64,000 nucleotides of DNA, taken from NCBI RefSeq assembly GCF_037975245.1, contig NC_092576.1, positions 30,234,611-30,298,610 on the forward strand, read 5' to 3'. Numbering within the stretch: position 1 is the first letter of the stretch; every line of letters begins with the position of its first letter. A program made the translations under genes and the position numbers. Shown in pieces: positions 19,557 through 43,264 of the stretch. Origin of the DNA: Apostichopus japonicus (Eukaryota; Echinodermata; Holothuroidea; Aspidochirotida; Stichopodidae). The notes beneath the pieces are model-generated. The model was not told where the DNA came from. It did no database searches and saw only the letters and a program-made list of their open reading frames with translations.

Positions 19557-19710
19557 ATCGGGCTGAAGTTGGCGAACAATAACAGCGACCAATAGCAGCG
19601 AACGTTAAGCATTACCAGCGACCATTACCAGCGAACAATAAGAGAGAGCGCAAATTGAAAATGATACTACGGAGAAGTTTAATGGCCATTCCAATGTAAC
19701 ATAAGGGAAA
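19557..19710 (+). repeat. Left terminal inverted repeat of the giant element
   Basis: It is rich in GCGAACAATAA and GCGACCAATA words, several copies in about 90 bp, which could be clustered transposase-binding sites. The same words appear in inverse at 43110-43255, including the block ATGATACTACGGAG. Confidence 0.7.
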
Positions 19711-20087
19711 ACTTTTTTCTAAAAACAAAACAAGTGGCGTAGGAAGGTACTTTTGAGTAGGGGGGGGGGGGCTGAAGACTGATGGCCGGCCTAGGAAGGG
19801 GTCTAAGGGGACTCCCCTTAGGGGAGGGGGACATCCCCTCCCCTTTGGAATTTGTTGGAATTTCCAGGTGGCCTCATATGCAATTTGGTGCAATGTAGCA
19901 CACTTCAATCCACCCACTCCATTTTGTTTATAATTTTTACCTGGCCTTCGATGCAATTTGGTGCTCCAAATGAGATTTTTTTTCTCATTTCTGAATGAAA
20001 AAGGGGTTTTCTGCCTTGCGAAGCGGGGGGGGGGGGCGGAATGATACTTCCGCCCCTCCATGTTTTTCAAAGTTTAGCAGTCTCATG
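19711..20087. other. G-rich interspersed repeat, no gene
   Basis: This stretch contains two poly-G runs (near 19760 and 20025) and a CCCCTTAGGGG palindrome. It interrupts the similarity between the left and right arms, so it is probably a later insertion into the left arm. Confidence 0.4.
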
Positions 20088-22046
20088 TACCGTGTATATA
20101 TGGGTTATCAACACGATTTTTGGCTAACAAATCAAATCTGTAACTCAGTATCATTAGGGTCCCAAAAGTAGCTGACGTCACCCTCTATCACCCCATACCA
20201 ACAAACCTCGGGGGACAGTATCGATTAGGGTGTTATTAACACCCAAACTCGACGTAAAGTCTCATTTACAGTTTAATACGGTTTTTCAACACGATTTTTG
20301 GCTAACAAATCAAATCTGTAACTCAGTATCATTGAGGAGCAAAAACGTAGCTGACGTCACCAGCTATCACCCCATACCAACAAACCTCGGGGGACGGTAT
20401 CATTTAAGGTGTTATTAACACCCAAACTCGACGTAAAGTCTCATTTACAGTTTAAATACGGTTTTTCAACACGATTTTTGGCTAACAAATCAAATCTGTA
20501 ACTCAGTATCATTGGGGAGCAAAAACGTAGCTGACGTCACCAGCTATCACCCCATACCAACAAACCTCGGGGGACGGTATCATTTAAGGTGTTATTAACA
20601 CCCAAACTCGACGTAAAGTCTCATTTACAGTTTAAATACGGTTTTTCAACACGATTTTTGGCTAACAAATCAAATCTGTAACTCAGTATCATTGGGGAGC
20701 AAAAACGTAGCTGAGGTCACCAGCCATCACCCCATATCAACAAACCTCGGGGGACGGTATCATTTAGGGTGTTATTAACACCCAAACTCGACGCAGTCTC
20801 ATTTACAGTTTATATACGGTTTTTCAACACGATTTTTGGCTAACAAATCAAATCTGTAACTCAGTATCATTGGGTCCCCACAGTAGCTGACGTCACCAGC
20901 TATCACCCCATACCAACAAACCTCGGGGGACGGTATCGATTAGGGTGTTATTAACACCCAAACTCGACGTAAAGTCTCATTTACAGTTTATATACGGTTT
21001 TTCAACACGATTTTTGGCTAACAAATCAAATCTGTAACTCAGTATCATTGGGGAGCAAAAACGTAGCTGACGTCACCAGCTATCACCCCATACCAACAAA
21101 CCTCAGGGGACGGTATCATTTAAGGTGTTATTAACACCCAAACTCGACGTAAAGTCTCATTTACAGTTTAAATACGGTTTTTCAACACGATTTTTGGCTA
21201 ACAAATCAAATCTGTAACTCAGTACCATTAGGGAGCAAAAACGTAGCTGAGGTCACCAGCCATCACCCCATATCAACAAACCTCGGGGGACGGTATCATT
21301 TAGGGTGTTATTAACACCCAAACTCGACGCAGTCTCATTTACAGTTTAACGGTTTTTCAACACGATTTTTGGCTAACAAATCAAATCTGTAACTCAGTAT
21401 CATTGGGGAGCAAAAACGTAGCTGACCTCACCATCTATCACCCCATACCAACAAACCTCGGGGGACGGTATCATTTAGGTTGTTATTAACACCCAAACTC
21501 GACGCAAAGTCTCATCTACAAGTTTATATACGGTTTTTCAACACGATTTTTGGCTAACAAATCAAATCTGTAACTCAGTATCATTGGGTCCCCACAGTAG
21601 CTGACGTCACCAGCTATCACCCCATACCAACAAACCTCGGGGGACGGTATCGATTAGGGTGTTATTAACACCCAAACTCGACGTAAAGTCTCATTTACAG
21701 TTTATATACGGTTTTTCAACACGATTTTTGGCTAACAAATCAAATCTGTAACTCAGTATCATAGGGGGCGAAAACGTAGCTGACGTCACTCCCTATCACT
21801 CCATGCCAACAAACCTCGGGGGACGATATCATTTAGGGTGTTATTAACGCTCATATTCTACGAAAAGTCTCATCCGCCGTTTATATACGGTTTTTCAACA
21901 CGTATTTTGGCTAACAAATCAAATCTGTAACTCACTATCATTGGGGTCCCAAAAGTAGCTGACGTCACCAGCTATCACCCCATACCAACAAACCTCGGGG
22001 ACGTATCATTTCTGGCTAACAAATCAAATCTAAACTCAGTATCATT
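20088..22046 (+). repeat. Subterminal satellite array, left (about 11 units of ~180 bp)
   Basis: Units recur every 177-181 bp. The word CACGATTTTTGGCTAACAAA begins near 20112, 20291, 20471, 20651, 20828, 21007, 21187, 21360, 21541 and 21720. A variant follows near 21899, and a broken unit ends near 22046. Each unit also carries CAAACCTCGGGGGACGGTAT and GTTATTAACACCCAAACTCG. Two sequence types alternate, one with TCCCCACAGTAGCTGAC and one with GAGCAAAAACGTAGCTGA. Eight of eleven units contain the palindrome TGACGTCA. The array is the inverse of the one at 41270-42672. Confidence 0.95.
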
Positions 22047-22402
22047 TAACGAATATAAAATATTATGATTATGATAGTGATAGATAGATCGATCGATCGA
22101 TCTTTGTTACCTCGTCAAATTAGGTTCATGTTGTCTACCGGGATGCCATTGGCTCCATTTCAATCTCGTTGTATGCCATATGCTTTTATTCGCAAAGCTC
22201 TTCTGCGTAAACTCGTCATGTTAGGTTCATGTTGTCTATGGGATGTCAGTGACTTCATGACAATCTCGTTGTATGCCAAAATGACTTCATGACAATCTTT
22301 ACCGCTATTCCATCAATGATAATTAATAAACAATATTGGCCCTTTCACAATATCCTGAATTTTGTTTGAACGTATCCGTATGTATGGCTCTGAATACGCC
22401 TT

Positions 22403-24718
22403 CTAGTCCGGTATCGTAAATATATGACGGTTCTTATTATTAGAATTCGGTACTTTTTCTTCTTTAACTCTACAATGAAACAGTTTATTAACGATGAAAT
22501 AACGAAATTCTTTGGCAGATTCTTCACAAAGAGGTTGAATTATCTTTCCTTTGACTACACATGTCGCAAAGTACAGCAAGAATACACCGCAGCTGTGTCC
22601 ATCTTTTTGTTTTGGGCATTGATAGTTTGAGACATTCCATCCAGTCATATTCATTTTCTCACCGTAGGCTGATAAGTAATGAAGTGATGTTACTAAAAGC
22701 AGTTCCTTGACTCTCTGTTGCATGAACTTCCCATACATCGGCAAAGAATCCAGGATGTCGATGTGCTGTTTTCCTGGATGTAAAACAACCAAATTCCAAT
22801 GGACTCCTGCACAGTTGTTTGGAATCAATACCATTTCAGAGTCAATGTACCAGTTACGTTTCTTCAGGCCCGACTGTATTGCCTCTCTGAGTAAAACGTC
22901 TTGAGCCAAACACAATGCCTGTCTGAATTTTACGCCGACGTGGCTAGAACAAAATGTGATATTATGCTTCCCTAATTTAAGTACACCTAACATATATGCC
23001 TCTATTAACGCGTCGTTAAGCCATTCATCGTTAAAGAGTCTTTGTCTGTCCGAATATGTTACGTTTATCCCTCCGACGTTCCATTCATCACTGTCCATCA
23101 TCAAATTTGTCATGGTAGATTTCTTCACTCGGAAGTCTAAGCCTGTGTTGTCGCATAGTATATACGGAAGAGGAGATTGTTGACTGTTTGGCGAACTGAT
23201 AGAAGGGAAATTGTACAAGAAAGGTTGCTCTGCCATCTTCTGAAACAGTAGGAGGGCCGGTGCGGTATTATTCAAAAGTTGATTTGAAGATATGTTAGAT
23301 CTTTGATAGGTATTGTCCTCCAGTAAAATCGTCATGAGTTTGGCTTTATAAAATAATGTTCGGTTTAGTGTTTGGGCTAATGGGGAGAACTGTACTAATG
23401 AAAGTAAGTTTGAAACATTTTTATTAAGATTTCGGCTATTTTCTATAATAATCATATCTGGAGGTAATAGTACAGTTGTTGAAATACATAGCTTTCCACA
23501 TTCGCATCGTGAGACCATTTCTTCTCTACATAAATGGTCAAAAACGTTGGAAACATCGAGGGCACAAGACGGTTGCTTTGGACACTGGTCAATATGTTGA
23601 AGAGTTATTAGGCATTTAATTATTTTCACGGTGCCTTTCCATATTTTACTTGGTTGACACTTTTGGGTAAGAGATATAGTAGTATACGTACGGTTTGCAA
23701 ACTCCTCCATAAATGCAGATTTCATTTCCGCAAAAGTTTCTTTTGAATTCACCTGTTGGATTTGACCATTTTTATGGATTGCGCGGTCGATTTTGGAACA
23801 AGCTTCAGGAGGTGGACTTTCTTCGGGCATGGTTTTGTAATGTGGAGAATTTGCCATCCTAGAATTTTCGTCGCTGGGTTCCTCACGTGCAGGACTCTTT
23901 TGCGCTCTGATAGGTGGAGTATTTTTGGTCGTCTTTGAATAAAACAAAAGATACGCATTTTCTTCAGTAAACTGTTGGTTCCATGGACGGATACGAGTGT
24001 CATCAATAACAATAAAATTGCCGTCGTCTCCTCTGCAAACTGCTGTAAAATGGCCAGTGTTAGTGGATTTTCCAACATGTTGTATAATTGATTCCAGTGT
24101 ATACGCAATGGATTCGGTGCTCATAGTTGGAGATGTAACATACAACGATTCCTCAATATCGAAAGGGACTGGATGTGTGTTTTTCACATTTTGTCCATAC
24201 TGATCATATCGTGGAATGACTACAATAAGCAGATCAGGCGCATAGGTGATTTCTTTGTGATTGATAAACTGTGTTTGGGATCCTCGACAAATCTCACTGT
24301 GACAAAGCATATCCTCGATGTATTCATCTTTGAAGCAATGCTTTAGTCGATCAGATACGGATGTCACTTCTTTGTCCCATATATTCATATACAGGTTTAC
24401 ACATGTTTGACAGTCGCTCGTACTGATGGAGGTATTACAGGTCTGACATGTGAATACGTTTTTTATTGTAATTTGAATCGGATTTCGCCCACAAATATGA
24501 AAGAGAGGTACCATTGCTCTTTGAATAAACTCAAGAGGGTCACATTGGCTATTAAAAGTCATTCCAACAAAGCGGTGGCATAGTGACAGAATGCGAGTCA
24601 GGCATCCTGACGATATAATAGGTATTCTGTTAACAAGCTGTCTGGATATGTCAATTAGTTTCACTTGCAACGGGGATAACAGTCTGCAAACATGAGATGA
24701 AAGACATTTTAAAAAAAG
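22403..24718 (-). CDS. USP (C19) and Ulp1 (C48) double cysteine protease, main part
   Basis: The N-terminal third is the body of a ubiquitin-specific protease. It has zinc-ribbon Cys pairs (CQTCNTSISTSDCQTC, about residues 75-90 counted from 24670), a PDLLIVVIPRY strand and the catalytic His box GHFTAVCRGDDG (His about 207) ending in ENAYLLFYSK. The catalytic Cys box lies upstream at 24719-25504. A middle part (residues 340-430) has another Cys cluster (CECGKLC) and LPPDMIIIEN, as if a second, degenerate USP core were present. The C-terminal third is an Ulp1-type deSUMOylase: NDEWLNDALIEAY, VHWNLVVLHPG (His about 624), IDILDSLP (Asp about 641) and QKDGHSCGVFLLY (Gln 688, Cys 694). All active-site residues are present. 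The frame ends 350 bp from the left satellite array. A role in clipping ubiquitin/SUMO or maturing the element's own polyprotein is inferred. Confidence 0.85.
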   Translation of the reverse strand, partial: LFLKCLSSHVCRLLSPLQVKLIDISRQLVNRIPIISSGCLTRILSLCHRFVGMTFNSQCDPLEFIQRAMVPLFHICGRNPIQITIKNVFTCQTCNTSISTSDCQTCVNLYMNIWDKEVTSVSDRLKHCFKDEYIEDMLCHSEICRGSQTQFINHKEITYAPDLLIVVIPRYDQYGQNVKNTHPVPFDIEESLYVTSPTMSTESIAYTLESIIQHVGKSTNTGHFTAVCRGDDGNFIVIDDTRIRPWNQQFTEENAYLLFYSKTTKNTPPIRAQKSPAREEPSDENSRMANSPHYKTMPEESPPPEACSKIDRAIHKNGQIQQVNSKETFAEMKSAFMEEFANRTYTTISLTQKCQPSKIWKGTVKIIKCLITLQHIDQCPKQPSCALDVSNVFDHLCREEMVSRCECGKLCISTTVLLPPDMIIIENSRNLNKNVSNLLSLVQFSPLAQTLNRTLFYKAKLMTILLEDNTYQRSNISSNQLLNNTAPALLLFQKMAEQPFLYNFPSISSPNSQQSPLPYILCDNTGLDFRVKKSTMTNLMMDSDEWNVGGINVTYSDRQRLFNDEWLNDALIEAYMLGVLKLGKHNITFCSSHVGVKFRQALCLAQDVLLREAIQSGLKKRNWYIDSEMVLIPNNCAGVHWNLVVLHPGKQHIDILDSLPMYGKFMQQRVKELLLVTSLHYLSAYGEKMNMTGWNVSNYQCPKQKDGHSCGVFLLYFATCVVKGKIIQPLCEESAKEFRYFIVNKLFHCRVKEEKVPNSNNKNRHIFTIPD

Positions 24719-25504
24719 TTAAAATGATCTGCATCTCGATAAACATTGCGTGGTAGAATTGAACCAACAATTGTTGCGTGAATTTTCCATTTGTGAGTAA
24801 AGAAGTCTGGTAGGAGGGTGCACGGATATTGTCGCTCCCTGTCGAGAAGACGAAATGTCAATTGAAGAAGCAAAGGGCACTTTGTTTTGATCTTGATACA
24901 GCTTCAATCCAGAGTTACTACATTCTGACGCAGAACATTTACTGAGTGAGGAGTTTGAATGAGTTGATGGTTTTCTTGGAAATGTCTGACGAAATGTTGA
25001 TTGTTTGAGTTCTGGTTTGTCACTATTCATTTCTTCACATGTCGCTGCGTCACAAAGCTTGTTATCTTCGAGATTTTCATGTTTTCTTGTTTCAGAAGAG
25101 GAAGAAAAGTAAGATGTCTTAGGTGGACTTTGAAAGGGAGCTTTCTGTTTACGTGGGGTCTTCTTTGCCCATTCTTCTCTGATGGTGCTAGTATTCTTTT
25201 TCTTTTCTTTCTTTTTCTTTACAAGAGTGACGTCTCGGAACTTTCTCTCTAAACCTATAATATCTGCAGTGTAAGCATACAAAAATTCGTCTAGACGGTT
25301 GTACCGCTTGCTCCCCAGTTGGTTATGCTTCAGAACTCCCATTCTCTGTTCTGAAATGCCGATCGTACGGGAACTCCTAATCACTTCAGTCCGTTCGTAT
25401 GCATGCTCATCATCTGCATGTTTGTTCCGCGAAAGATCACCAAGGAGCAAACCAGACCAGAATGGAGCTGTTGGTAGTAGAGTCTGAACTATCTGATGAA
25501 AAAA
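24719..25504 (-). CDS. Transposase C-terminal tail plus USP Cys box (-1 frame)
   Basis: This frame opens at the very end of the transposase, in the -1 frame relative to it. It first reads PTAPFWSGLLLGDLSRNKHA and later RYNRLDEFLYAYTADI, which I take as the missing C-terminus of the transposase. A long Lys- and Ser-rich linker follows, then NSRNNCWFNSTTQCL. This is the Cys box of a ubiquitin-specific protease (NNCWFN, catalytic Cys). The frame hits TAA at 24719-24721, yet the next codons in the same frame lead straight into the rest of the USP at 24670. Either this is a nonsense mutation, or a short intron is removed; a polypyrimidine tract ending TTTGCAG lies at about 24683-24705. No GT-AG pair with ideal consensus restores the frame (an 81-nt intron using GCAAG as acceptor would). 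There is no good ATG start, which supports expression as an extension of the transposase. Confidence 0.7.
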   Translation of the reverse strand, partial: FFHQIVQTLLPTAPFWSGLLLGDLSRNKHADDEHAYERTEVIRSSRTIGISEQRMGVLKHNQLGSKRYNRLDEFLYAYTADIIGLERKFRDVTLVKKKKEKKKNTSTIREEWAKKTPRKQKAPFQSPPKTSYFSSSSETRKHENLEDNKLCDAATCEEMNSDKPELKQSTFRQTFPRKPSTHSNSSLSKCSASECSNSGLKLYQDQNKVPFASSIDISSSRQGATISVHPPTRLLYSQMENSRNNCWFNSTTQCLSRCRSF

Positions 25505-28481
25505 CTCCTGTATTTATTACTACGTTGTATTTGTACAGATAGGCTTGCATTATCTGCCTCTTTACTTAAAGCATCGTTGACTTTAGCAATAATATACTTG
25601 AAATGACTGGTAAAACTAGATATTTGCTCTGATAAACAATCGTCTTCACTCTTTGCTGACAATTGGTTGTCATGATCTGTCACCTCGACCGATTCGTACT
25701 TATCATTCCATTCTGCTTCCATGTGTTGTCCTATACGCTCCAGCCTTTCATCCAATCTTTCAATCGACTGTTTCAATGTCGCTCCGGATATATTTGACAA
25801 CAAAACTATTGCAATGTCATATAATGAAGATGAAAATTCCGTTAATGTTTGACAGTTCATTAGTAAACTTATCATGTGCATTCCAAGACTGTAGAAACGT
25901 TTATAATGTTTCTTTGCAATTCGCTTTGCATTATTCATTAGATGGCTGGCACACGAATGGGGTATCGTCTTCTGGAAATCAGCCTTACTTGCTGATCCGG
26001 TAACAATTCTCCATGCTCTTGAGTAGAATGCGTTAAAATTTTCCCCATTAAAAACGTCTAAAGCCGCTGCTCGGTCGCTGTTTATTTGCTTCGGTGTTAC
26101 ACAGCGGTTGTGACCAAATGTTGTTTTTTCAGCATGTCTGAAGACCATCAGCCAATATTTAATGGTTGGCAATGAGTGATCGTCGCTGATTAAAATGGTG
26201 ACGTGTAGAGTCGTTTGACGAGATATAGTACTTCTTACTGACAATTCGTAATATAGAATTCTTTTTCTCGTCAAAGTAGATTGTATGCAGCTCCCGGTAG
26301 CATCCCAAAATACAACATCTTTTCCACAAATATCGTGCCATGCCCGCATCCCACCCTCAGTGAAGCAAATGACAAACAAGGGTTTAATGGATATATGCTG
26401 AATGTATCCAACGATGTTTGCATCTGCATTAACTTCCAACTTCTGTTTTTCCATTAAAGTTACCAAGCTTTTCAACTCGTCTATATCCATACGGTTGTTT
26501 GCCCTGGACTCACTTGAAAGCTTTTGATAAACGTGCCCATCTCGATTGCCCGATTCATAAACTGAATTATCAATCGTCGATAATTTGTTGATTTGTAGTT
26601 TCATCGGTTTCACGGATCCTACTGAAAATGTTGATAAGATATCTCTTCTTTCTGAACGTCGTATATGCCGAGCTTTGATATCTTCTTTCGAATGATGGAC
26701 GTTACCGTAATAAACAATACTCCCATTCAGCAAGTTATTAACTTCCATTTTCAAGTTGCACTGGCAATTGTCGAATTGGCATTTGGCTTTTGTCCAGAAA
26801 GCGGGACCCTTTCGCTTCCTCAGTAAGGATGTACTTACCCTGTGGTACTGAAAATTGAATGAGCAGTAGGGATTTGATTCTCGCACGATCTTTAATACAG
26901 GCTTTTGCCACTCTCCTCGGCCAAAACATCTACCCCTTTGGGTTCTCTTCAAACGTATCCAGGCCTTCTTAGGGAAAACAAAGGAAACCTTCTTAGGGAG
27001 GACTCGATTAAAAAATTGAATTTTGTCCTTGCGAGGTTTGCTCTCTGTAGTGAAGATCTCTTGTTCATTAATTTTTCTGAAATTGTATTTTTCTTCATAC
27101 TCAAGATCTTCATTGTCCTGTTGAGCCGCAACAATTGGTTTGCATTCTGTTGAAAGGTCGACATAATGTGTATGGTGTTGCGGATAACTGTCTAAAGTTT
27201 CGTCTAAATCATCGTAGTCTTTTTTTGAGCTGTGCGCACTTTTCTCGATATTGGTATCGACACAGTCAACGCTCTCTTGTCCATCATCCTTTCGGAATTT
27301 GTCTTTTTCTTTAGATACGAGGTCTTCGTTGTCCTGTATGAGGAACGGTATTTTTTTAATACCTTTGTTGCGTGTTCTTCTTTCTGCAAAGGGTGTTTCT
27401 GCATCACTTTGCTGTTCATAATTTCGAAAAGGGTCATCGTTTTGTTCATCATTTCGATAAGCATCATCGTTATAATCATCACTTCGATTTAAATCATATA
27501 TCTCTTGATCATTTCGATTGGCATCATCGTTATGTTCATCACTTCGATTTAAATCATCTTTTTCTTGGTCATTTCGATTAGCATCATCGCTTTGTTCATC
27601 ATATCGATGAGCGTCATCGTGATGTTCATCATTTCGACAACCGTCATCGTCCTGATGTTGTACGAGGATTGAATCGCGCAGTGAAATTCTAAGGTTCGGT
27701 GAAAAAGTGGGAAGAGATTCACTTTGGATTCCCATTGTCGTCCAAAATTCTCTGACATTGCCATTACAGTTATTCAAACCACAAACATAGTGAATGTTCT
27801 CATCATTTACAATGTGTGTAGGAATCCCAACACATTTGTAATGGTACCACATTTTGCATTTTTGGCATTCTATGTATTGCAACAGTGGGTTATAAACTGT
27901 TCGACAAATGCAATGCAGCTCTCGATGAGATGTCCACTCATCTGTATAGCGTTTGACTTTCCGAAAACGTTTCGACACTCTTATCATTGTTTTTTCTTCT
28001 GGTAAACTGTTTGGTGGTTCTTGACTAGTATGCAATGTTTCTTTAGCTTCCAGAACACTTCGGACATTCCCTCGATTTTCTTCCCATATCGTATACAACC
28101 GATGAACAGATTGCGAAAGTTTGCTCCTTGGCCATGACAATTTCAAAGCGATTCTCTTCCAAAAATGCATATCGAATGGAAGTATAAATCCAGCTGATTT
28201 CAAAAGTTCTTTTGATATTGCAGAGCGAATTTCGTTGTAATTTACTCTGTTGCGCGATTTTGCTACTCTCTTGTGTTTTCGTTTCTTCTGCTTGCTTCCA
28301 TTTTTCATATGTCGATCTTTCGCTCCTCCCTTAAGAGTGCCGCCAGTCTTCGTTCGGTGTACGAGATGGTCAATTGTAGCACTGGATACATACTTTGGAT
28401 CCAATTCTTGTTCTTGTATGTCCAAGGTACCTTTCTCCTCTTTTTTGCGTTCTGCCTCATCCAACAATGCAACAATCTGTT
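25489..28481 (-). CDS. MULE-like transposase, main exon with PHD finger
   Basis: An acceptor (CTCCTTAACAG) precedes this exon, which then reads IVALLDEAERKKEEKG; residue numbers below count from the Met at 28467. A basic segment lies at 50-75. A PHD finger spans 186-234 (CICR…CQKCKMWYHYKC…CGLNNC). An acidic tract of roughly 20-residue repeats (NDDANRNDQEKDDLNRSDEH type) covers 273-355. A Cys/His cluster at 563-592 (CQFDNC…VHHS) recalls the WRKY-GCM1/FLYWCH zinc module that precedes MULE catalytic domains. The core then follows: VVFWDATGS (Asp 722), INSDRAAAL (Asp 798) and the C-x2-H signature HSCASHLMNN. The final Glu was not assigned. The frame stops at 25489, nine bases after the slippery-looking T TTT TTC, and homologous-looking sequence continues in the -1 frame. 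It most likely cuts and joins DNA at the element's ends. Confidence 0.75.
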
Positions 28482-30460: not shown

Positions 30461-31964
30461 CTATTGAAAGTAAGAAGAAAGGAGTCCACGGTAATTAGTT
30501 GTAAAGAATAAGTACAAGATATACAGCTTCTTTCTTCATTTTTGTCATTATGAATGATCAGACGATACACCACGCTAAAGGAAAGTTTTGTTAAACCTTC
30601 TCTAGCGTACGTGTCAATATGGATATAGCTTCGCTATCTTCATAATATTAATACATGAAGCACAAGATGGAAATCAACCGATAGACAGACGAAAAATAAA
30701 GATTGAAGAACAATTATTATTAGTATTCTTAGCAATTACGGTCCCGGATTGCTGCAGAAATAAAAGTGTTATTACTCACGTTTCCATGTGCACTTAATTA
30801 TTAACGTATCGTTTCTGTATTGCATTTTTGCGTACATAAAATTGTGTGACCTTATTTAATCTATGAATCACACCCGGAGCTTATGATATTATTACTAAAA
30901 TGGTGTTTTACCTAATGGATTACAACTGACTTCTTATCGCATCTTAATATAATATGATATGGTATGGCCCAGTAGCAGTAATAATATAAAAAATAGCATG
31001 TGGGGGAAGGTACCAATTTAGTTCATTAAGACGTTAATTATTGTTTAGCACAAAATGATTGAAAACGACTTGGCGAGTGATAATATTAAATGCAGTTATG
31101 ATATCAAAATGGACGGAATCTAACGTTGTTCCCACTAAAACTAGTATAATAGCTTTTGAAATTGCCGTATACAATTATGAAACACTCTCTTGTAGATTAT
31201 TTTAACGTTTGCAAAACTTGTCCGAACTGCATGGTAACTAAGAGAGTTTCAGTAAAAAATGACATTTTTCTGAATATGAGACTATACATTGTTGGCATAA
31301 TTTTCATTGAAAATGTGACCTTTAGTCTCACTGCCGTTAGATGTTGACCGGGCAATTTAATAGGCTCTCCTGGTTGGTCAAAGGAAATTTGAGCTGTGTG
31401 AGTGACTTTTCCACGCTTCTTTGTTGTCGAATCGATAACGTAACACATAGGCTATGGTTCCAGACTAATAACCTCGATAGGTGAAGAAGTGGGCAGTTGC
31501 AAAAAAGGAGCGGCAGTCGCACTAAAGGGCGTATTTTCACTTGTCGAGGATTTTGTCATTGTCTCTTTTTTCGTTTTACGCTAAAATAGTAGGATATCTA
31601 TCAGAAATATACCTTTTTCCTCCTGTAAGTTCTAGATTGATTAATGGCATTAAGAGGTAAATTTTATCGTTGTTAAGGGGTAGGCTACATTTTATCATTG
31701 TTACAACACCTGGTCACGTATCGAAAATTGCGGGCACTCTGTTAAATGAAGTCGGCGGATCACATGTTCAGATCCCAAACTGAATGGCTATGATCAATAT
31801 CTCTTTTATTATTCAGATGAAGTTAGCCTATATGCAGCGTCTTGTGAGCTTGTGTATGGTTAAGACGTATCAGTTCAAACTTACCTCGGAATGCCTTAAA
31901 CTTGACAATTCCTTTGGGAGCCAATTGGAGAGGATGAGGCGAGACAACCTTCGTCTGAACTGAT
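30461..31964. other. Space between transposase and SGNH genes; no further gene seen
   Basis: It holds the second MITE copy (31308-31539). A minus-strand AATAAA-like word (AATAATAAAAG, near 31803-31812) could serve as the SGNH gene's poly-A signal. The missing first exon of the transposase may be here but was not recognised. Confidence 0.4.
31308..31539. mobile_element. Small MITE, copy 2
   Basis: It has inverted ends TGAAAATGTGACC and GGGCGTATTTTCA and shares interior words with the copy at 4201-4447 (ttaataggctctc, gaaatttgagctgtg, gaagtgggcagt). It is inserted between two genes of the giant element. Confidence 0.6.
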
Positions 31965-32100
31965 TCATCTATAACCCTGCTTAAACAATGCAATGTCGCT
32001 GAGGTGAGCAGCATCGCCATGTGCCCAATGCTCCGTATATTCTTTGCAGAACAAGTCACTAACGTCATAAAACCTTGCCCCAGTTTCTTTGCACACTTTT
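31965..32100 (-). CDS. SGNH/GDSL-type hydrolase, last exon
   Basis: The acceptor TCTATTCACAG precedes an exon that starts with one base completing the Arg codon left open by the previous exon. It then reads KVCKETGARFYDVSDLFCKE, next EHWAHGDAAHLSDIALF, and stops after KQGYR. GDAAHLS is the D-x-x-H block V of SGNH hydrolases, which carries the catalytic Asp and His. Length and position of the stop agree with the end of that fold. Another acceptor at 32128 (ATTACAG) would put the exon in a frame that does not encode block V, so it is less likely. The exon is invisible as a standard ORF because it lacks a start codon. Confidence 0.75.
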
Positions 32101-32455
32101 CTGTGAATAGATTGCAATTTTGTCTGTAATAAGTAAGAATGACATATCGAGAAAGGATTCTCTAAACTAGCCTATTATTGGGACACTAGACAATTTGGTA
32201 ACGAAGATGCATTGATCTTTTAAAAAGAAAATGTCTTGACTGCCCCAGCTATCTTAATCTGGCTTCATTAAGTACAACAACGAAAAATGGTTTGCCATTC
32301 ATAATGCTTCCATCACGTTCAGAAAAGAAGTAATTTTATAGATGAAAGGACAAAGTTCATTTGACGACCTTCTTTTTCCTTTGATTGTTTCGAAATGGAT
32401 ATTCGGCCATTGTGCCGCATTCGACTGTACAAAATTGCTGGACAACGTTGCAATA

Positions 32456-33016: not shown

Positions 33017-34575
33017 CTGAAAAAGTACACATATAGGTTCTTGTTTATTATTCGTTAGGATAACTCATTGACCATAACAAAAGTTGTTACTTCTCGGTAT
33101 TCATAAAAAGAGAGTGAAGTTTCTTTTGGCTCTATAAAAGTTAAACATATTTGAAAATAAACAAAGCGAGGAAAAAAACACACAAATAACTGAGGGCATT
33201 TAGATATTACAACTGTACGCCAAGTTGATGGGTTTTCGACCTCGTTAAAGGTCTGCTGTATAGACCCCAAGTATAGCACGCTAACATTAAAAAGTTTCTT
33301 GAGATTACGTAATCGACCTGCCTTGGTCTTAAATTGACCTCTCTTTACCAATTAGTCTGCAACGCCTGCCAAATATGTTTTCTTGTATAAGGGTCTTTTG
33401 TCAACGCTGTATAATTAACTACACTGAAGACATGTTCCACACAGTGTTTACACAAAGAGCCTCATGGTGGTAAAAAGGTATGCAGGCCAATTGTAGAGCC
33501 TGCGGTCGTTTTACGACCATGTCAGGTCGATTACGTAATCAAAAAACTTTCCTCGCTATATATAGCGTGCTATAATTGGGGCCAATAAAGCAGATCTTTA
33601 AGATATCTGTTACACTGGCAATCATAATTGTTGCAGCAAACAATATTATGATATGTACAAGCACACCATAGATGCGGTTTTGGTATATGTGAATTCCTTT
33701 TGCGGAGGTAATCTGAAATAGTAACAAAATATGGGGCTGCGGAGCAGTTCATGAATGGGGTATAGAAATAGAGTCTTATCTATCATCGGAGATTATTGTT
33801 TTAAAACAATATCAGAGCATAGAGAACGATTGCCTTTTTTGAGATATATGCTCTCTCTGGAACACCATCTCATTTTGAGAGAATATTAAAATGGATAAAA
33901 CTGGCCCATTGTAAAAATCATTGTGATATTACACGCTAACTGCTTCCCCGCACACTGCCCATACTATGCGAATGCATTATATTTAGCCTATAAAAAAATA
34001 CTGATCATCCGCTACCGTGCTCATCCTCATGTAGTTTTTACATTACTGAAACGCGAACCGCTTATCTCGCTTGTCAATAATGTTTCACAAGTGTTGAATG
34101 GTTGTGCAGCTGATTTTAAACAACAAAGAAACCTTTCTTACACCTGCTCAAAACCGCATATTTAAGCTTCATATTATACTCTTTTACTATTATAGTTTAG
34201 TTAACCTTATAATCGAGAATAAGCTTGAGACTTTGTCTACACCATGATTCTGTCCAATCCTTCTCTATTTCATTCGTTTATTTAATTAATACTAGTATAA
34301 ATATAAAATTTATTAAAAAATGAGTCTTCAGACAAAAACAATGCAGCTTGCGATTCATGTCCGCTTTCATTTATATTTCTACACCGGGAGAGACACCATA
34401 TGTCCCTATCTGACGGACGAGAGTGTACCCCTGTAGCATCTGGCCACTTTCTCAAACACCGGGGTAAGCAAAGACACCCCATTTGTCCATCACAGTGCAG
34501 CCGTGGTCTGATTGGTTGTTTTTATGTATAACCGTGTAAGTCAACATTTTAGTTCGTTTTGAATCTGGAACTTAC
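33017..34575 (-). other. Intron of the SGNH gene
   Basis: It runs from the GTAAGTTCC donor to the TACTTTTTCAG acceptor. It contains several unassigned short frames, of which none resembles a known protein. Confidence 0.5.
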
Positions 34576-34860
34576 TTTGGAGCTTGGAAATTTAGCTCTT
34601 GTAGCGATGATTAATTGCTTAAGTTCCTTCTTATCTTCGATCAGCGATGTCTTATGGAATACATTATTGGTTCCGGCTTCGATGAAGACAACGTCTGGTG
34701 TATCTGTCGGAGGGTTGGATGCAGCAACTTCAATTGCAACATGACTGCATCGACCACCAGGAGTACAATTGAATCCAACTATTACATGAAAGTCCTCAGC
34801 AGAATGATAAGGGCCATCTATAAGACCTCGCAGTTGCGAATCACCGTAGAAATAAACGAC
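34576..34860 (-). CDS. SGNH/GDSL-type hydrolase, catalytic N-terminal exon
   Basis: A polypyrimidine tract ending TTTTTTTAG is followed by exactly 95 codons and then the donor GTAAGT. The sequence opens VVYFYGDSQLRGLIDG, which is block I of the SGNH fold (GDS, with the nucleophile Ser). IVGFNCTPGGRCSHVAIE provides the Gly of block II. DVVFIEAGTNNVF provides block III (G-x-N, oxyanion-hole Asn). With DAAHLS in the last exon, all four SGNH signatures are present. Such enzymes hydrolyse esters or acyl groups; the substrate cannot be told. Esterase domains are known in ORF1 of some CR1 LINEs, but here the gene is spliced, lies between the transposase and the right arm of a DNA transposon, and shares its strand. 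An upstream exon with the start codon must exist. Confidence 0.8.
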
Positions 34861-35609: not shown

Positions 35610-38456
35610 AAAAATTACCTCAAATTTACCGTGGTAAATCTGTTGTACATTACCGCGGTGTTTTGGCCCTATGGACCCGGTTAACTGCAGTAAATTATCA
35701 CAAATTTACCATGGTTTTACCTCGCTTTTACCCCAATTTACCACGGTGTTACAATACTGTAACGCTACCTCGTCCGTGGTGTGAGATCAGGTCTCGACTG
35801 GAGTCTAGGATCACTGGAACGGAGTTCTCTTCTGAAATAAATACTCAGGCACACAAGGTCGTAGGTATAAACAATCTATTTACAACACGACTTGCTTTCA
35901 GTTTCATGCTACAGGCATTAAATGAACATCTGAATACATTTATGTAGTATATATATGAAGAAAAATCAATGCAACACAATGTAGGACCCTGGTGACAACT
36001 AGTCAGGTGTAGAGTCCCAGTATATGACCTGCGGAATATTCCTAATTCCGCCAGAAACCAGTATTATAGTATATTCCGCAAAAATAGGCGGAACAAGCCT
36101 CCTTTCCGTTGTTCGGCGGAATCCACTCAATTCCGCGGGTAGGCGGAATACCCTCTGTTCCGCTGTTAGGCGGAATACCGTCAATTCCGCGGGTAGGCGG
36201 AATACCCTCTGTTCCGCTGTTAGGCGGAATGCCGTCAATTCCGCGGGTAGGCGGAATAGCCCTGTGTTCCGCTGTTAGGCGAATTACCGACAATTCCGCG
36301 GGTATGGGGTGGAAAGATGGTCCCTACATCTAGAATATAACAGCAGCTAAAATATGTGGTTCCGTAAAAATGAAAGAGGCCCTCCCGTTAGGTCCAGAAT
36401 ACCAGCAGAAATATGTAAATGTAATTTCCCCCTTGGTACGGAATAATTTAACCCCCAGCCAGACAGATGTCGAGTTACACTCTGCCCGATTAATGTCACC
36501 GTTAATTTAGGTGTTCAACGTCTGGTCTCTATACGACCGATTTATATATATAGGTTGATTACTGGTACTTACTCTAGGCCCGGTTAGATTCACGGCAAAA
36601 CTTCTACGGCGACGGTGCACAACGACTCCAGAATATAAAGTTATTAGGGCTAACTAACAGTTGGTTTACCCAAATCAAACACAGAGAAATTGACTGACTA
36701 TACAAACAACAAAAGTTCAATCACAACTTAACGATTCTAATTCTAATCTATATATATAACGACCACTTTGATAAAGATCCTTTCTCTTCGGCTGCAAAAA
36801 CAGATCTGTCTTAACCCTGCGTATCAGTGCAGGCTGGCCGTAACTTTCACACAGCACGTGTCAGGAAGTTACTGAACAAAGTTAAACAATAGTAGCGGAA
36901 GCTCAACTTCCGGCCCACGAGGCCTTCATGTGCACTCATCGCCATGACGCTTAACAGCCGTAATCTACGGTAGCTTATTAAGCACTACAATATAATTATG
37001 ATTAAACAAAAATGTCACCTATTTTTGTAACAATACTTTTACGCGGCTTTTACTACACTTTTACCACGCCTTTACCCTAACTTTACCACAGTTTTACCGT
37101 TCTTTTACCCCAATTTTACCATATATTTACCACGCTTTTTCCTTAGTATTACCTCAATATACCATACTTTAACCGCGCTTTTACTACACTTTAACCACGC
37201 TTTTATCCTAAATTTACCACAGTTAACCGTTCTTTTACCCCAATTTTACCATGGTTTTATCGTAGATTTACCACGCTTCTACCTTAGTTTTACCTCAGTT
37301 TACCATGATTTTACACTACTTGTAGGACAGTTTTACTTCACATTGAGCATGATTTTGTCCTAATTTCAATCAGCATATACACCATAAATTTCTTTCATTT
37401 CACCCATCAGTGTACTATATCATAATGTGGCTATACGCCTTCATCCTTAAAATCAAATAAAAGGATTTTATCCTTGTTCGACCTCGCAAGAGGTCCTTCG
37501 GGGGATTCTTCAAGAGAAGTCATCATATCATATCTGAAGTGATACATGAACTTGCCATGTCATTTTATGGACCTGACAGAGAATACCCAAATCTTTGGAC
37601 ACTGATTGGTCAATATTTGTGGGCTACAGTGTTGAGGCACAGGAGCTATGCATTATGCGTGCTAGTTTATTCTTCTCTTTTTTCATTTGAAAGGCTTTTA
37701 GGTTCTCCCTCATGATAAAAAGAATTAATTGTTGTGTCCTCTCAAATACATCAGGGATTCCATGAAGGAATTCTCTATGTAGGTTATATATCCACTGCTT
37801 GTTTTTTTTTTAGGAAAAGAGATGCATACTATAACATATAAGACTAGCAGTTTGTCTCTCTTCTTTATTCAAGTCATATCCACAGGTAATTTATATTGCC
37901 AACATTAAGATACGAGTAGAACACTAGTTGGCAAAAGGTTTGTCATATATCAGTATTGCAAAAATATGGGACAAAATCATGGAAAATTGCTGTAAATGTA
38001 CTATGTTGTTTCATAGTGTGACCCATATATGTTCTACTGTGGTAAAATCATGGTACAATTATGGTAAATTTACCATAGTATAATTTCACCGTATAGTTTT
38101 ACCCTATTTTTACTGTGGTTAATCATGGCACAATTGTAGGAATTTCACCTATTTAGTATATGTACCATATAAATTTACCCTACTTTTACTCCAGTAATAT
38201 CATGCTGAAACTACGGTAAATTTACCGCAGTAAATGTTCCGCAGTTTTACCCTACTTATACCGCGGTAATACCATGGTAAAACTGCGGTAAATATAACGC
38301 AGTAAATGTACCGCACTTTTACCATGCTTTTACCGCGGTAATACCATGGTAAAACTGCGGTAAATGTACCGTGGTTGATTAACCACACATTTACCCTATT
38401 TACCACATATTTACCATAGTTTACCCAGGTAAAATTAGAATACATTTTTTGCTGGG
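35610..38456. mobile_element. TTTACC/GGTAAA-rich element with inverted ends
   Basis: The left edge reads CCCAGGAAAAAAATTACC near 35602-35619. The right edge read in reverse is CCCAGCAAAAAATGTATTC, and then both continue into dozens of TTTACC words. The motif TTTACC(A/G)CGGTAAA and its relatives fill 35620-35765, 37040-37330 and 38030-38430. They are mostly in TTTACC orientation on the left and mixed in palindromic form on the right (TTACCGCGGTAATACCATGG). The ~2.8-kb unit is probably a non-autonomous DNA transposon. No transposase or target duplication was recognised. Confidence 0.5.
36100..36312. repeat. Minisatellite of 54-bp units (AGGCGGAAT)
   Basis: The block GTAGGCGGAATACCCTCTGT recurs 54 bp apart near 36142 and 36196, and half-units (GGCGGAAT…ATTCCGC) alternate orientation every ~27 bp. 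Frames on both strands translate as 18-residue repeats, but this is a by-product of the period being a multiple of three. Confidence 0.75.
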
Positions 38457-39783
38457 GTGCAACGTTATAAGGAAGTTACTACGCCCCCCCCCCCAAAAAA
38501 AAACGAGTTTCGTCAACCGCTGCTTCAGTTGCGATGGATAGTAAAAAGAGAAAGTCATGCACGAAGACAGTAATATTTCTTGATTTTTTGTCATTTTGCC
38601 CTTCTACTAGAGAACTATCGAACTAGACTCCAGCGGCTGTTGGTAAAGCATCAGATATATATAATTTTGCGATCGCGACACCTTGGAGAATTTCCATGTT
38701 TTGCATTTTGGGAGGGGGGAACCAATCTTCAGCCAGATTTCGATCTGAGCGTCGGAAAAAAAACGGTTTTCAGATTTCACGACACCGTGCAAGCAGTGAC
38801 TTGCCGAAGACAAAAAAATGAAACTACAACGCAGAACCTTGTAAGTCCCAATCAAACGAAAAGAAGGAGAAATAAAACCCTAAATCCATCAATATCCATC
38901 CATCCACCTAAATCCATGCATATCGCTGAATGCATTAAATTTCAACTCCAAAATACTTGACCACCCTTGCTGTTTAGTGGAACAGAATAATTCACTACCG
39001 GTATTGTTTAAACTTTCCAAAAACATAAATAAAATTATCTAACCATATTAAGCAAATGACCTTACCACCTCTGGTGTTACGGATTTCATGTTACTACAAA
39101 GAGGCAACTACTTGTATTTTGCAGACTACATATGTTCAATAGGTGCATAAAACAGTATTGTGCTCTTTTAGATAATATGATATATGTGAACGGTATGTAG
39201 GTTCCCGGGCTCTTCGTGTTTTCGTATACTACACTGGTCAAAGCTCAGTTTGGTTTATGGGTAATAGTCGGCAGGCTTCCTTAATTGTGTGTTCTACGAA
39301 CTTTGGGAGGGGCATGAAATGTTACAGGGATATGTGTTGGACTACTTTTTTCGAGCATTGAGTCTTTGCGTTATTTTGGCAACCATTTAGTGACTGACCT
39401 AATCATATAGGCCTGTTTGTATTTCATTGCGTAAAAACATTTTAGGTTGTAAAACTTTTCCTGGGCACGTTTTAAGAATGTTTGTCATTCATGAACACCT
39501 GAACACATCAAGCAAGTGTATGGTCTGCAGGGAAGGGGGGGGGGGTGGGCTACCTTTAAATACGTTTTACATAGATTACATAGAGCTCATCTAAAAAGAC
39601 ATTTTAGAGCAGCATATCCGGCTTAAGAGGAAAACATTTTCTTGCATCCCTCTTTTGTTACAAATTTGTCTTCATCACTCAATGATGCAAAAAATTAACA
39701 TTCACATTACTTAGATGATAATTTAGATCATTTTGGATAATTTGGAATGTATATGTAATGTGTTTACAATATTAATGAACTTA
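38457..39783. other. No gene confirmed
   Basis: A 126-codon plus-strand frame (38580-38960) has no recognisable domain and no supporting splice or promoter context. A poly-G run lies near 39535. I treat the stretch as non-coding. Confidence 0.35.
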
Positions 39784-39990
39784 CTGGTCGTGGATCATTT
39801 TTTTCGTACTTGGCCCATGATTCTCTGTTTTGTTTGCCACTCTCACCGACTGGCCATCTTTTCGGGCGCGTGCGAAAGCCTGTGCCGTAAGAGAAAGTTT
39901 CCCTCCTCTGCCAGAAATCCCGTTCCAGCCAGCAAGCAATACTCCCAAGTCTTTCTGACATCCTGGCGACTAGCCGATGTCTTCGAATCG
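39784..39990 (-). CDS. Possible 5' exon of the SGNH gene
   Basis: The frame reads AIRRHRLVARMSERLGSIAC, then WLERDFWQRRETFSYGTGF and later ESWAKYEKNDPRP. It ends at the canonical donor GTAAGT in phase 0. The catalytic SGNH exon at 34860 also starts in phase 0, so the join would read KYEKNDPRP-VVYFYGDSQ. The intron would be 4.9 kb and would hold the TTTACC element as a later insertion. An in-frame ATG is available inside the exon. No domain is recognised; the composition is strongly basic. This is a hypothesis based on splice signals and phase. Confidence 0.35.
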
Positions 39991-40129
39991 CTGAGCTAAC
40001 TTAAAGTTATCACTTTTACTGTTATTAGCTATTCACTAACTTTCACGTTTTTTCTGTCTGTCGCAATGTACACATTTTATACAACTCTTAGTGTATTTTT
40101 TTTTTCTTTTTCTTTCAAGCAAAATATAT

Positions 40130-40816
40130 TGTAGTGATTTCAGGGTGATGAGAAACTACATTTTCTCACACTAATATGTTTACACCCATTGTAGTTTATA
40201 TGACTTAAATGAAGAGCCTAATGTATAGTCTTTGAAATCTGTACTCCTGAGAATCTTTAAGTGTTAATTAAAAGACCTAATGAGTCATAAGAATACGTGT
40301 CATAAGCGTATCTTATCTTGATTTAAAAGCCTGTGAAGGTTTTACTGCATGTTCTTACCTTCTTCCTTTTCCTGGGAAAGTTTTACTGTATACATACGCT
40401 TATGTTATTCTTTGTAAAAGGTGCGAAGACAGCCAGCTTAGCTTATCAGGATTGGTGGTCAGTAGCTGGGCATGGGTCTGCTTAAATAAGGGTGAAGTCA
40501 GTGGTCAGAAGCCAGTCTATCCCAGTTGTAATTTGTCACCTACCATTAAGTTTGCTACCCCAGCAGTTCTCTGCAGTTATCCTTTTTAGTCTGTGTCACT
40601 TGGTCAGTTGTTTATTTCGTCAGCTGTTAGTAATTATTCAGTCATTTCTTGTTTACTTTGTTGTTATTTAGCCTTTTATGTCAGTGTCTTACATTAATAA
40701 ATAGAAGCCAACTCTATTAGCTGTGTTTCGTGACTTATTTTGGAGCTACAATGTTATTCTTTGAACAGTCGACTTTTACGTGAAAGTTACCCGAATTTAC
40801 GGTGGGCAACGCTACA
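40130..40816. mobile_element. Probable solo LTR
   Basis: The 687-bp unit begins TGTAGTG and ends CGCTACA, so it has the TG…CA ends and short inverted repeat TGTAG/CTACA of an LTR. The 4-bp sequence ATAT flanks it on both sides (40126-40129, 40817-40820). AATAAA lies near 40697, about 120 bp from the end, as expected for a poly-A signal. No internal retroviral genes adjoin it, so recombination between two LTRs has likely removed them. Which family it comes from is not known. Confidence 0.55.
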
Positions 40817-41214
40817 ATATTTTAACATTTTTTCCGAAACAATGCATTATGTCAAAAATTGTAAGCGGCGGTTGTAAAAGAAGTATTCATGTGTACTCTC
40901 TTGCATATATTTTAGAGTAACATAATATAAAGAAGATATGTAGGCTTCTTTTGAGTGAGATTCAAAATTGCATTGTTGAAATGCATTCTGTAAAGTATAG
41001 GAAATGTGTGCATGGAATTTGGACAGGAAATGGGTGCATGGAATTTGGACTTTGTAAATATTCTTCAACTTGAAGCATATGAATTTAAATCTAATTACAA
41101 ATCGTTCAAATTATGAATTTCTTGTTCAACTTTGAAGTTGTTATATCTCAGTGTGAAAGATTTCGTAAGGCAAACATAGGTTTCTGTTCCCACCAACGAG
41201 ATACAGTGACATGG
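40817..41214. other. No gene seen
   Basis: Non-coding DNA between the solo LTR and the right satellite arm. A near-duplicate phrase (gtgcatggaatttggac) occurs at 41009 and 41034. Confidence 0.4.
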
Positions 41215-41266
41215 TACACTACTGGGGAGGGGGTATCACATGTAATATCCCTTCCCCAGTAGTGTA
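41215..41266. repeat. Hairpin at the inner edge of the right satellite array
   Basis: TACACTACTGGGGA at 41215 and TCCCCAGTAGTGTA ending at 41266 are exact reverse complements, extended by GGG/CCC around a short loop. It abuts the first satellite unit. Confidence 0.7.
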
Positions 41267-41269
41267 ACA

Positions 41270-42672
41270 GGCCACTTTACGTCGAGTTTGGGCGATAATA
41301 ACACCCTAAATGATACCGTCCCCCGAGGTTTGTTGGTATGGGGTGATAGAGGGTGACGTCAGCTACTGTGGGGACCCAATGATACTGAGTTACAGATTTG
41401 ATTTGTTAGCCAAAAATCGTCTTGAAAAACCGTATTTAAACTGTAAATGATACTTTTCGCCGAGTTTGGGTGTTAATAACACCCTAAATGATACCGTCCC
41501 CCGAGGTTTGTTGGTATGGGGTGATAGAGGGTGACGTCAGCTACTGTGGGGACCCAATGATACTGAGTTACAGATTTGATTTGTTAGCCAAAAATCGTGT
41601 TGAAAACCGTATATAAACTGTAAATGAGACTTTGCGTCGAGTTTGGGTGTTAATAACACCCTAAGTGATACCGTGCCCCGAGGTTTGTTAGTATGGGGTG
41701 ATAGCTGGCGACGTCAGCTACGTTTTTGCTCCCCAATGATACTGAGTTACAGATTTGATTTGTTAGCCAAAAATCGTGTTGAAAAACCGTATATAAAGTG
41801 TAAATGCGACTTTTCGCCGAGTTTGGGTGTTAATAACACCTTAAATGATACCGTCCCCCGAGGTTTGTTGGTATGGGGTGATAGAGGGTGACGTCAGCTA
41901 CTGTGGGGACCCAATGATACTGAGTTACAGATTTGATTTGTTAGCCAAAAATCGTGTTGAAAAACCGTATAAAAACTGTAAATGAGACTTTTCGCCGAGT
42001 TTGGGTGTTAATAACACCTTAAATGATACCGTCCCCCGAGGTTTGTTGGTATGGGGTGATAGCTGGTGACGTCAGCTACTTTTGGGACCCCAATGATACT
42101 GAGTTACAGATTTGATTTGTTAGCCAAAAATCGTGTTGAAAAACCGTATATAAAGTGTAAATGCGACTTTTCGCCGAGTTTGGGTGTTAATAACACCTTA
42201 AATCATACCGTCCCCCGAGGTTTGTTGGTATGGGGTGATAGAGGGTGACGTCAGCTACTGTGGGGACCCAATGATACTGAGTTACAGATTTGATTTGTTA
42301 GCCAAAAATCGTGTTGAAAAACCGTATATAAACTGTAAATGAGACTTTTCGCCGAGTTTGGGTGTTAATAACACCTTAAATGATACCGTGCCCCGAGGTT
42401 TGTTAGTATGGGGTGATAGCTGGCGACGTCAGCTACGTTTTTGCTCCCCAATGATACTGAGTTACAGATTTGATTTGTTAGCCAAAAATCGTGTTGAAAA
42501 ACCGTATAAAAACTGTAAATGAGACTTTGCGTCGAGTTTGGGTGTTAATAACACCTTAAATGATACCGTCCCCCGAGGTTTGTTAGTATGGGGTGATAGC
42601 TGGCGACGTCAGCTACGTTTTTGCTCCCCAATGATACTGAGTTACAGATTTTATTTGTTTGCCAGATGTGGT
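41270..42672 (-). repeat. Subterminal satellite array, right (about 8 units of ~180 bp)
   Basis: This is the same satellite as at 20088-22046, in the opposite orientation. GATACTGAGTTACAGATTTG recurs every ~180 bp, and each unit has the CCCCGAGGTTTGTTGGTATG word. GACGTCAGCTAC is present in all eight units (near 41354, 41535, 41711, 41891, 42070, 42249, 42427 and 42607). A degraded unit continues to about 42830. Confidence 0.95.
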
Positions 42673-42830
42673 TTTGAATAACAGTATATATATGCTACGT
42701 TTTACTTTCAGTTGCCGAGTTAATTGTTAATATCCCCCTGCCCGACATCGTCCCTCACGGTTGTTGGCATACTTTGGTAGAGTGTAATGTCAGCTTTAAC
42801 GTTCACCCCACCCTTCTTCATGTTTCCCAT

Positions 42831-43109
42831 TAAGCTTTGTTTCCAAATATGTTAACTTACGCTTTTCGCTGATATTCGGGGCAGGTCTGATATTTTAAGA
42901 GCTATAATTTTGCTTTACCACGATAATGAGTTAGGCCATACCCTGACTTTTGGGATATTTTATACCCCGTTCCATAATTACGAGTTTGTCGGGTTTGAAT
43001 CTCTTATAATAAATTATTTAATGCATGGAACGTCCAAAAGCCTGTCTTTCCCTCCTAATTGCAATCGATTGAAAGCATTCGATCATTCAATTTGCTTTAA
43101 ACACATCAT
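42831..43109. other. No gene seen
   Basis: Sequence between the decayed satellite and the right terminal repeat; nothing recognised. Confidence 0.4.
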
Positions 43110-43255
43110 TTTTGCCACATGGCCCATTACGAAGGTCACTACACAACTCCGTAGTATCATTTGCACTTTCTATCATTTTTTGGTCGCCCTTATTGGTCGC
43201 TCTTATTGTTCGTTACTATTGTTCGCTCTTATTGTTCGCCAACTTCAGCCAGACT
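43110..43255 (-). repeat. Right terminal inverted repeat of the giant element
   Basis: Inverse of 19557-19710. It has CTCCGTAGTATCAT at its inner side and repeated TTATTGTTCGC/TTATTGGTCGC words, and ends GCCAACTTCAGCCAGACT. Confidence 0.7.
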
Positions 43256-43264
43256 AGGGGCCTA
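43256..43264. repeat. Target-site duplication, right copy (AGGGGCCTA)
   Basis: Identical to 19548-19556 and directly adjacent to the right terminus. Confidence 0.65.

What the first reader, a model, noticed from the sequence alone, without database searches (positions are those of the whole stretch)
19557..43255. A 23.7-kb giant DNA transposon with satellite arms and a multi-gene cargo
Seen: mirrored ends flanked by the same 9-bp direct repeat AGGGGCCTA, two arrays of one ~180-bp satellite in opposite orientations just inside them, and all recognisable interior genes on one strand. Known: MULE-type elements make 8-11-bp duplications and can have long inverted ends. Inferred: the whole is one mobile unit encoding a PHD-containing transposase, a USP+Ulp1 protease and an SGNH hydrolase. 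I know of no described element with this combination.
Basis: partly seen in the sequence, partly recalled or inferred. Interest (0 to 1): 0.95.

Follow-up and report, generated by a model that had tools for sequence, protein, structure and literature searches.

The report
Giant satellite-armed transposon family

Summary
Window 19557-43255 is one DNA transposon flanked by AGGGGCCTA. Its end sequence occurs 50 times in the genome (reversed-pattern control 0); 42 sites form 21 inward-facing pairs 6.9-35.3 kb apart. Of 14 other pairs tested, 12 have exact 9-bp duplications (0 of 182 mismatched pairings). Empty sites with one duplication copy exist for the window insertion (2 places) and a second target (69 places). 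All 10 elements read in full carry inverted arrays of one 179-bp satellite, 4-143 units per arm. Among them only the window copy encodes a transposase: a PHD-DDE-deubiquitinase (USP)-SUMO protease (Ulp1) polyprotein, split here by a frame change and a stop, but intact in relatives, including two 2017-aa frames elsewhere in the genome. So the proteases are not cargo. The SGNH gene is a fragment, seen beside transposase pieces at one other place. PHD finger, 9-bp duplication and satellite-bearing ends match published descriptions of Rehavkus, a Mutator relative, but no Rehavkus sequence could be compared. What looks new is the size range, the fused protease pair and the probable echinoderm host.

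The parts
19548..19556 (+). left 9-bp target-site duplication AGGGGCCTA
   Evidence: empty site with a single copy
43256..43264 (+). right 9-bp target-site duplication AGGGGCCTA
   Evidence: empty site
19557..19687 (+). left terminal inverted repeat (family terminus ATCGGGCTGAAGTTGGCGAACAATAA) with about 13-bp sub-repeats of the type GCGAACAATAAGA
43134..43255 (-). right terminal inverted repeat (family terminus ATCTGGCTGAAG; here AGTCTGG, one extra base)
20079..22011 (+). left satellite arm, 10.8 copies of a 180-bp unit
41274..42690 (-). right satellite arm, 7.9 copies of the same unit, inverted
25489..28479 (-). ORF1, 996 aa: N-terminal part, PHD finger, first two catalytic Asp residues (WDATGS, SDRA) and a C..H motif of a DDE transposase
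   Evidence: PHD Pfam 1e-4, just under the curated cutoff; 34-36% identity to intact relative P0003; 48% to two 2017-aa open frames in the same genome
27781..27912 (-). PHD finger (ORF1 residues 190-233)
   Evidence: alignment
24719..25513 (-). ORF2, 264 aa, other frame: third catalytic Glu block (EQRMGVLK), linker, and USP cysteine box (NNCWFN); ends at a stop at 24719
22403..24718 (-). ORF3, 771 aa: rest of the USP (Pfam UCH 2.8e-18, about 23939-24466) and Ulp1/C48 protease (1.9e-14, about 22496-22861)
34552..34860 (-). N-terminal half of an SGNH/GDSL hydrolase, fragment
   Evidence: Pfam GDSL_2 E=9.6e-6, below curated cutoff; only one other genome match, beside a decayed transposase relative
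31968..32171 (-). possible C-terminal half of the SGNH hydrolase (W..GDAAHLSD, motif read by eye), 2.4 kb away
   Evidence: sequence; no GDSL match in Pfam for this piece
35633..38456 (.). interior stretch of which pieces are shared (74-89%) with non-autonomous copy E2 on contig C7; includes TTTACC-type repeats

Best explanation
A Rehavkus-like (Mutator-related) cut-and-paste DNA transposon, 19557-43255. Shown: family-wide conserved ends, 9-bp duplications, empty sites with one copy of the duplication, inverted satellite arms in all 10 elements read in full, and a transposase polyprotein PHD-DDE-USP-Ulp1 that among the paired-end elements was found only in the window copy, where it is split by a frame change and a stop. 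Inferred: the transposase binds the terminal 13-bp repeats, cuts both ends and inserts with a 9-bp stagger. It mobilises the satellite-rich copies that lack coding capacity in trans. USP and Ulp1 remove ubiquitin or SUMO from the transposase or host repair/silencing factors, or process the polyprotein. Satellite arms grow and shrink within elements by unequal exchange or copy-and-repair after excision, so transposition carries the satellite to new sites.
For: Ends: 50 genome sites, control 0; 21 inward pairs (lengths). Duplications: 12 of 14 other pairs exact, E14 8 of 9 bases, E2 not matching; 0 of 182 mismatched pairings. Empty sites: window 2 places with 1 mismatch over 44 bp, control 0; E4/E13 target 69 places with at most 3 mismatches, 28 exact, control 0. 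Satellite: 10 of 10 fully read elements have both arms; 29 of 30 end loci (one doubled end counted twice) have it inside, 174 monomer words inward and 0 outward; 894 exact 17-mers genome-wide, 484 of them in the 10 elements. Polyprotein: P0003 1937 aa and P0002 1117 aa; transposase and protease matches in 2017-aa frames at C12 and C8; catalytic motifs aligned.
Against: The window gene is split, so it cannot be shown to be the current source. ORF1 matched no transposase family in Pfam at E up to 0.1, nor did P0003 at E up to 10, and the structure prediction failed (pLDDT 30), so DDE is assigned by aligned motifs only. E2 has no matching duplication. One of 30 end loci (L024) shows no satellite. 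The 1.2 kb after the C12 intact relative shows no satellite, so satellite arms are not shown for related lineages.
Confidence: 0.86

Rival explanations
1. A Mutator-like element outside Rehavkus: an undescribed animal clade that acquired PHD, USP and Ulp1, with satellite arms evolved independently.
For: No Rehavkus protein could be compared. Published Rehavkus hosts are Arthropoda and Annelida, and the host here is probably an echinoderm. The genome holds several deeply split lineages of this transposase, 23-58% identical to ORF1 among the longer matches.
Against: PHD finger, 9-bp duplication and satellite in the inverted termini together match the published Rehavkus description.
Confidence: 0.3
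2. Gene-capture (Pack-MULE-like): a satellite-ended element that picked up unrelated host protease and hydrolase genes as cargo.
For: The non-autonomous copies have interiors mostly unlike the window's. The SGNH pieces sit away from the transposase and are broken.
Against: PHD, USP and Ulp1 share one frame in P0003, and transposase and protease matches share 2017-aa frames at two places in this genome. SGNH has one other match in the genome, just upstream of transposase pieces on the same strand.
Confidence: 0.1
3. Two independent satellite-bearing insertions or an assembly artefact that only look like one unit.
For: E6 has a doubled right terminus, and E2/E3 have shared flanking repeats, so rearrangement does occur between copies.
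Against: Exact duplications, paired inward ends at 21 sites and empty sites.
Confidence: 0.02

Closest known systems
Rehavkus DNA transposons (Rehavkus-1_TC of Tribolium; passages of PMC6446971 and PMC10218199 seen)
   Same: 9-bp duplication, PHD finger in transposase, satellite in inverted termini (164-bp unit, mostly five and eight monomers, 9.5-kb element), TIR in the 26-400 bp range
   Different: Here 6.9-35.3 kb, 179-bp unit with 4-143 monomers per arm, fused USP+Ulp1, broken SGNH gene, probably an echinoderm. Published hosts are Arthropoda and Annelida. The passages seen do not mention proteases in Rehavkus.
Mutator (MuDR) elements with Ulp1 of hydra, lancelet and plants (PMC2836005 passages)
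   Same: Mutator-type transposon with a Ulp1 protease; ubiquitin-pathway role already proposed there
   Different: No USP domain mentioned together with Ulp1 in the passages seen; no satellite arms mentioned
Ginger1 transposons (PMC2836005 passages)
   Same: Transposase with C-terminal OTU or Ulp1 protease, one with PHD
   Different: Gypsy-integrase-like transposase, 4-bp duplications, about 2.6-7 kb, either OTU or Ulp1 but not both
Tetris foldback element of Drosophila virilis (abstract and section list of PMC4079207)
   Same: About 220-bp tandem repeats inside inverted termini that seed satellite arrays
   Different: Apparently non-autonomous, and also forms longer kb-size satellite arrays. 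Here a coding member exists and no free-standing array was seen among the 100 of 894 satellite places listed.

Membership tests
Rehavkus | 9-bp target-site duplication | tested here: met
   window exact, with one irregular base at the right end; 12 of 14 other pairs exact; empty sites
Rehavkus | PHD finger in the transposase protein | tested here: met
   Pfam PHD E=1e-4 in window, 22.7 bits, under the cutoff of 24; P0003 9.3e-6, 26 bits, above cutoff; aligned Cys/His pattern
Rehavkus | tandem repeats/satellite in the termini | tested here: met
   10 of 10 fully read elements
Rehavkus | TIR 26-400 bp | tested here: met
   about 130 bp at 75% identity
Rehavkus | transposase groups with known Rehavkus transposases in a tree | not testable with these tools
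   no Rehavkus sequence at hand
Rehavkus | host in Arthropoda or Annelida (published range) | tested here: inconclusive
   nearest named protein is from Holothuria and assembly figures resemble Apostichopus japonicus, so probably not met; a range, not a structural criterion
Mutator-like (MULE) superfamily | DDE with a C..H motif between the second D and E (recalled) | tested here: inconclusive
   motifs aligned in window and P0003, the Glu block also in P0002; no Pfam MULE match; fold prediction failed
Mutator-like (MULE) superfamily | 8-11 bp duplications | tested here: met
   9 bp
Ginger1 | 4-bp CCGG/CCGT duplication | tested here: not met
   9 bp

The most novel reading that the evidence does not exclude
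A living transposon system in which the element itself is the generator and sole carrier of a satellite DNA. A protease-armed PHD-DDE transposase mobilises satellite-ended copies whose arms change length rapidly (4 to 143 monomers), preferring a hot spot in one host repeat, while USP and Ulp1 protect the transposase from ubiquitin/SUMO-based host silencing.
Probability: 0.3. Interest if true: 0.8.

Novelty: new variant of a known kind. Interest (0 to 1): 0.66.

Why it matters
Whether transposons make satellites or satellites colonise transposons is an open question. Here one satellite family lay within or beside one transposon's ends at all of the 100 places listed out of 894, with about twenty copies, exact duplications, empty sites and a 35-fold range of arm length. 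That makes array growth, homogenisation and spread directly measurable. The USP+Ulp1 fusion adds a testable link between transposition and the ubiquitin/SUMO pathways.

Tried and rejected
Multi-gene cargo: rejected for USP/Ulp1 (same polyprotein). Two separate satellite insertions: rejected by duplications and empty sites. 8-bp duplication (considered because it aligns the window ends without a gap): rejected, as other copies show 9 bp and the window right end has one extra base. Intron between ORF1/ORF2 or ORF2/ORF3: considered only by eye on the junctions printed, no fitting splice pair seen; relatives read straight through there, so lesions are likelier, though an assembly error is not excluded. 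Structure prediction of ORF1 with one relative: pLDDT 30, useless. Scans of viral contigs with ORF1 and with P0003: no relative. ORF1 as a plain protein query: nothing, probably because full-length relatives exceed the length limit. My first cut of satellite monomers used a poor anchor and gave wrong averages; redone. Paper searches listed no paper that by title, abstract start or the passages I opened describes this combination; one search listed 12 of 252 papers, and I opened none in full. Passages of PMC13359780, PMC4298943, PMC6947457 and PMC6431247 were also seen and added nothing decisive.
Full report
OBSERVATION. AGGGGCCTA occurs in the window only at 19548-19556 and 43256-43264. The mirrored ends align over about 130 bp at 75%. 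The satellite arms lie at 20079-22011 and 41274-42690, inverted. Monomer identity is 92.2% and 92.8% within the arms and 91.6% between them.

OTHER COPIES. The window lies in G000 contig C16 at 30234611-30298610. The 22-base end sequence is found 50 times with at most 2 mismatches, control 0. Forty-two of the 50 sites make 21 inward pairs, the window included, 6.9-35.3 kb long, median 14.9 kb. The other eight are two extra sites beside pairs (C8:3738557, and C16:31713367, which leaves the length of pair E17 ambiguous) and six unpaired sites (C3, C6, C9, C12, C16, C17). Most elements have one ATCG and one ATCT end; E1 has two ATCT ends. Of 14 other pairs whose ends were cut out, 12 have identical 9-bp flanks, E14 has 8 of 9, and E2 does not match; 0 of 182 mismatched pairings agree.

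EMPTY SITES. The window's joined flanks with one AGGGGCCTA match two places on C8 with one mismatch over 44 bp, control 0. They are copies of the target sequence elsewhere, not alleles, and I could not fetch their surroundings. Elements E4 and E13 sit in the same 9 bp of the same dispersed repeat, in opposite orientation. That stretch occurs uninterrupted at 69 places with at most 3 mismatches, some of them within the 9 bp; 28 are exact, control 0. E9 lies about 14 bp from that position in the same repeat, and a copy of the pattern adjoins the right end of E15. I read this as a target preference; the number of events is small and no test against repeat abundance was made.

SATELLITE. All 10 elements read in full carry two inverted arrays of the same unit (about 179 bp), from 4.1 to 142.8 copies per arm. 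In 30 end loci, which include one doubled end counted twice (L022/L023), 29 have the satellite within 1.5 kb inside and none outside: 174 words inward, 0 outward. The exception is L024, an unpaired end. A 17-base word present 484 times in the 10 elements (about 500 monomers) occurs 894 times in the genome, control 0. The 100 places that the tool listed all lie inside elements or beside unpaired ends; the other 794 were not listed, though 484 of the 894 are in the 10 elements. Over 477 monomers and a random half of the pairs, identity is 94.4% within an arm, 92.7% between arms of one element and 93.2% between elements. So the arms are one family-wide satellite, with only a small excess of local duplication (pairs at 99% or more: 5.0%, 0.8% and 0.3%).

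CODING PART. On the minus strand, ORF1 (996 aa), ORF2 (264 aa, other frame) and ORF3 (771 aa, after a stop) together carry a PHD finger, DDE motifs, USP and Ulp1. The first protein search found nothing. The second found P0002 from Holothuria leucospilota, 41% identical: transposase C-terminus, USP and Ulp1 in one protein. The third, whose query covered the whole length, found P0003, 1937 aa, unnamed organism, with PHD, UCH and C48 in one protein. The two Asp and the Glu of the DDE, the C..H motif, the USP Cys/His/Asp and the Ulp1 His/Asp/Gln/Cys align; P0002 lacks the first part of the transposase. Which residues are catalytic is recalled family knowledge. In the same genome ORF1 has 49 matches (the tool scored 46 of 110 candidates), of which one, the window, falls between paired ends. 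Two relatives (C12, C8) have 2017-aa open frames that also hold the protease matches. A 42% lineage with frames of up to 1509 aa shows USP but no Ulp1 match, and the 31% lineages show neither, so the protease pair is not universal, or has diverged past detection. Only the window element among the 10 read has coding matches.

SGNH. The N half (34552-34860) is a weak Pfam match; the C half is a reading by eye without Pfam support. Genome-wide the N half has one other match, C8:36989601-36989906, 46%, with a stop, upstream of transposase and USP pieces at C8:36991171-36995475 on the same strand. So the linkage was seen twice, both times in damaged genes. It looks like an accessory gene of one lineage, not a recent capture.

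MECHANISM. Shown: insertion with 9-bp duplication into an intact site, family-wide ends, satellite arms. Inferred: cut-and-paste by the polyprotein transposase, trans-mobilisation of the copies that lack coding capacity, binding at the 13-bp repeats, and roles of the proteases. The window copy has one frame change and one stop relative to relatives; whether these are real or assembly errors is untested.

KNOWN RELATIVES. Rehavkus, from passages read: 9-bp duplication, 26-400 bp TIR, PHD finger, minisatellite before the 3' TIR, Arthropoda and Annelida (PMC6446971); [quoted passage not shown] Ulp1 in Mutator elements of hydra and lancelet, and a ubiquitin hydrolase joined to another transposase type in Trichomonas (PMC2836005 passages). 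Tetris, abstract and section list only. The works-like claim is strong. The member-of-Rehavkus claim is probable but lacks the sequence test.

HOST. G000 has 671,581,487 bp in 35 contigs, and C16 is 46,036,110 bp. The published Apostichopus japonicus assembly has 671.60 Mb, 34 scaffolds and chromosomes of 18.21-46.02 Mb (PMC10344927 passages). The figures are close, not identical; the host is an inference.

SCORE. New variant of a known kind. The satellite-transposon relation and the double protease fusion earn 0.66.

Noticed in passing
window 63163-63594 (minus) and on to about window 72085 (G000:C16:30297806-30306683, minus): Pieces of a second, decayed relative of the same polyprotein (Ulp1, USP, DDE in the same order) lie about 20-29 kb to the right of the window element, running past the window end.
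   Followed up: partly
G000:C3:49641, C14:1015804, C4:13383281, C8:17329874, C22:26390909: Five copies all 42% identical to the window transposase, four with 1509-aa open frames (C22 1340 aa) holding DDE and USP matches: possibly a recently active sister lineage. They were not compared with each other.
   Followed up: no
elements E4, E13, E9, E15 (G000 C8, C16, C11, C16): Four of 21 elements sit in or beside the same spot of one dispersed repeat, two at the identical 9 bp in opposite orientation: a possible insertion hot spot.
   Followed up: partly
L022/L023, G000:C8:3738557-3738611: Right terminus of E6 is doubled (two end sequences 33 bp apart); the outer one carries the matching duplication.
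   Followed up: partly
G000:C7:5597967-5675481: E2 lacks a matching target duplication and its right flank resembles flanks of neighbouring E3 in inverse order, suggesting recombination between copies.
   Followed up: partly
window 33245-33601 and 31350-31539: A possible small inverted-repeat element (79% arms) nested inside, and a repeat also present at 4248-4447.
   Followed up: no
G000:C17:19460293-19464290 and end sequence at C17:19473123: Broken transposase and USP pieces lie 9 kb from a lone diverged end sequence that faces away from them.
   Followed up: no
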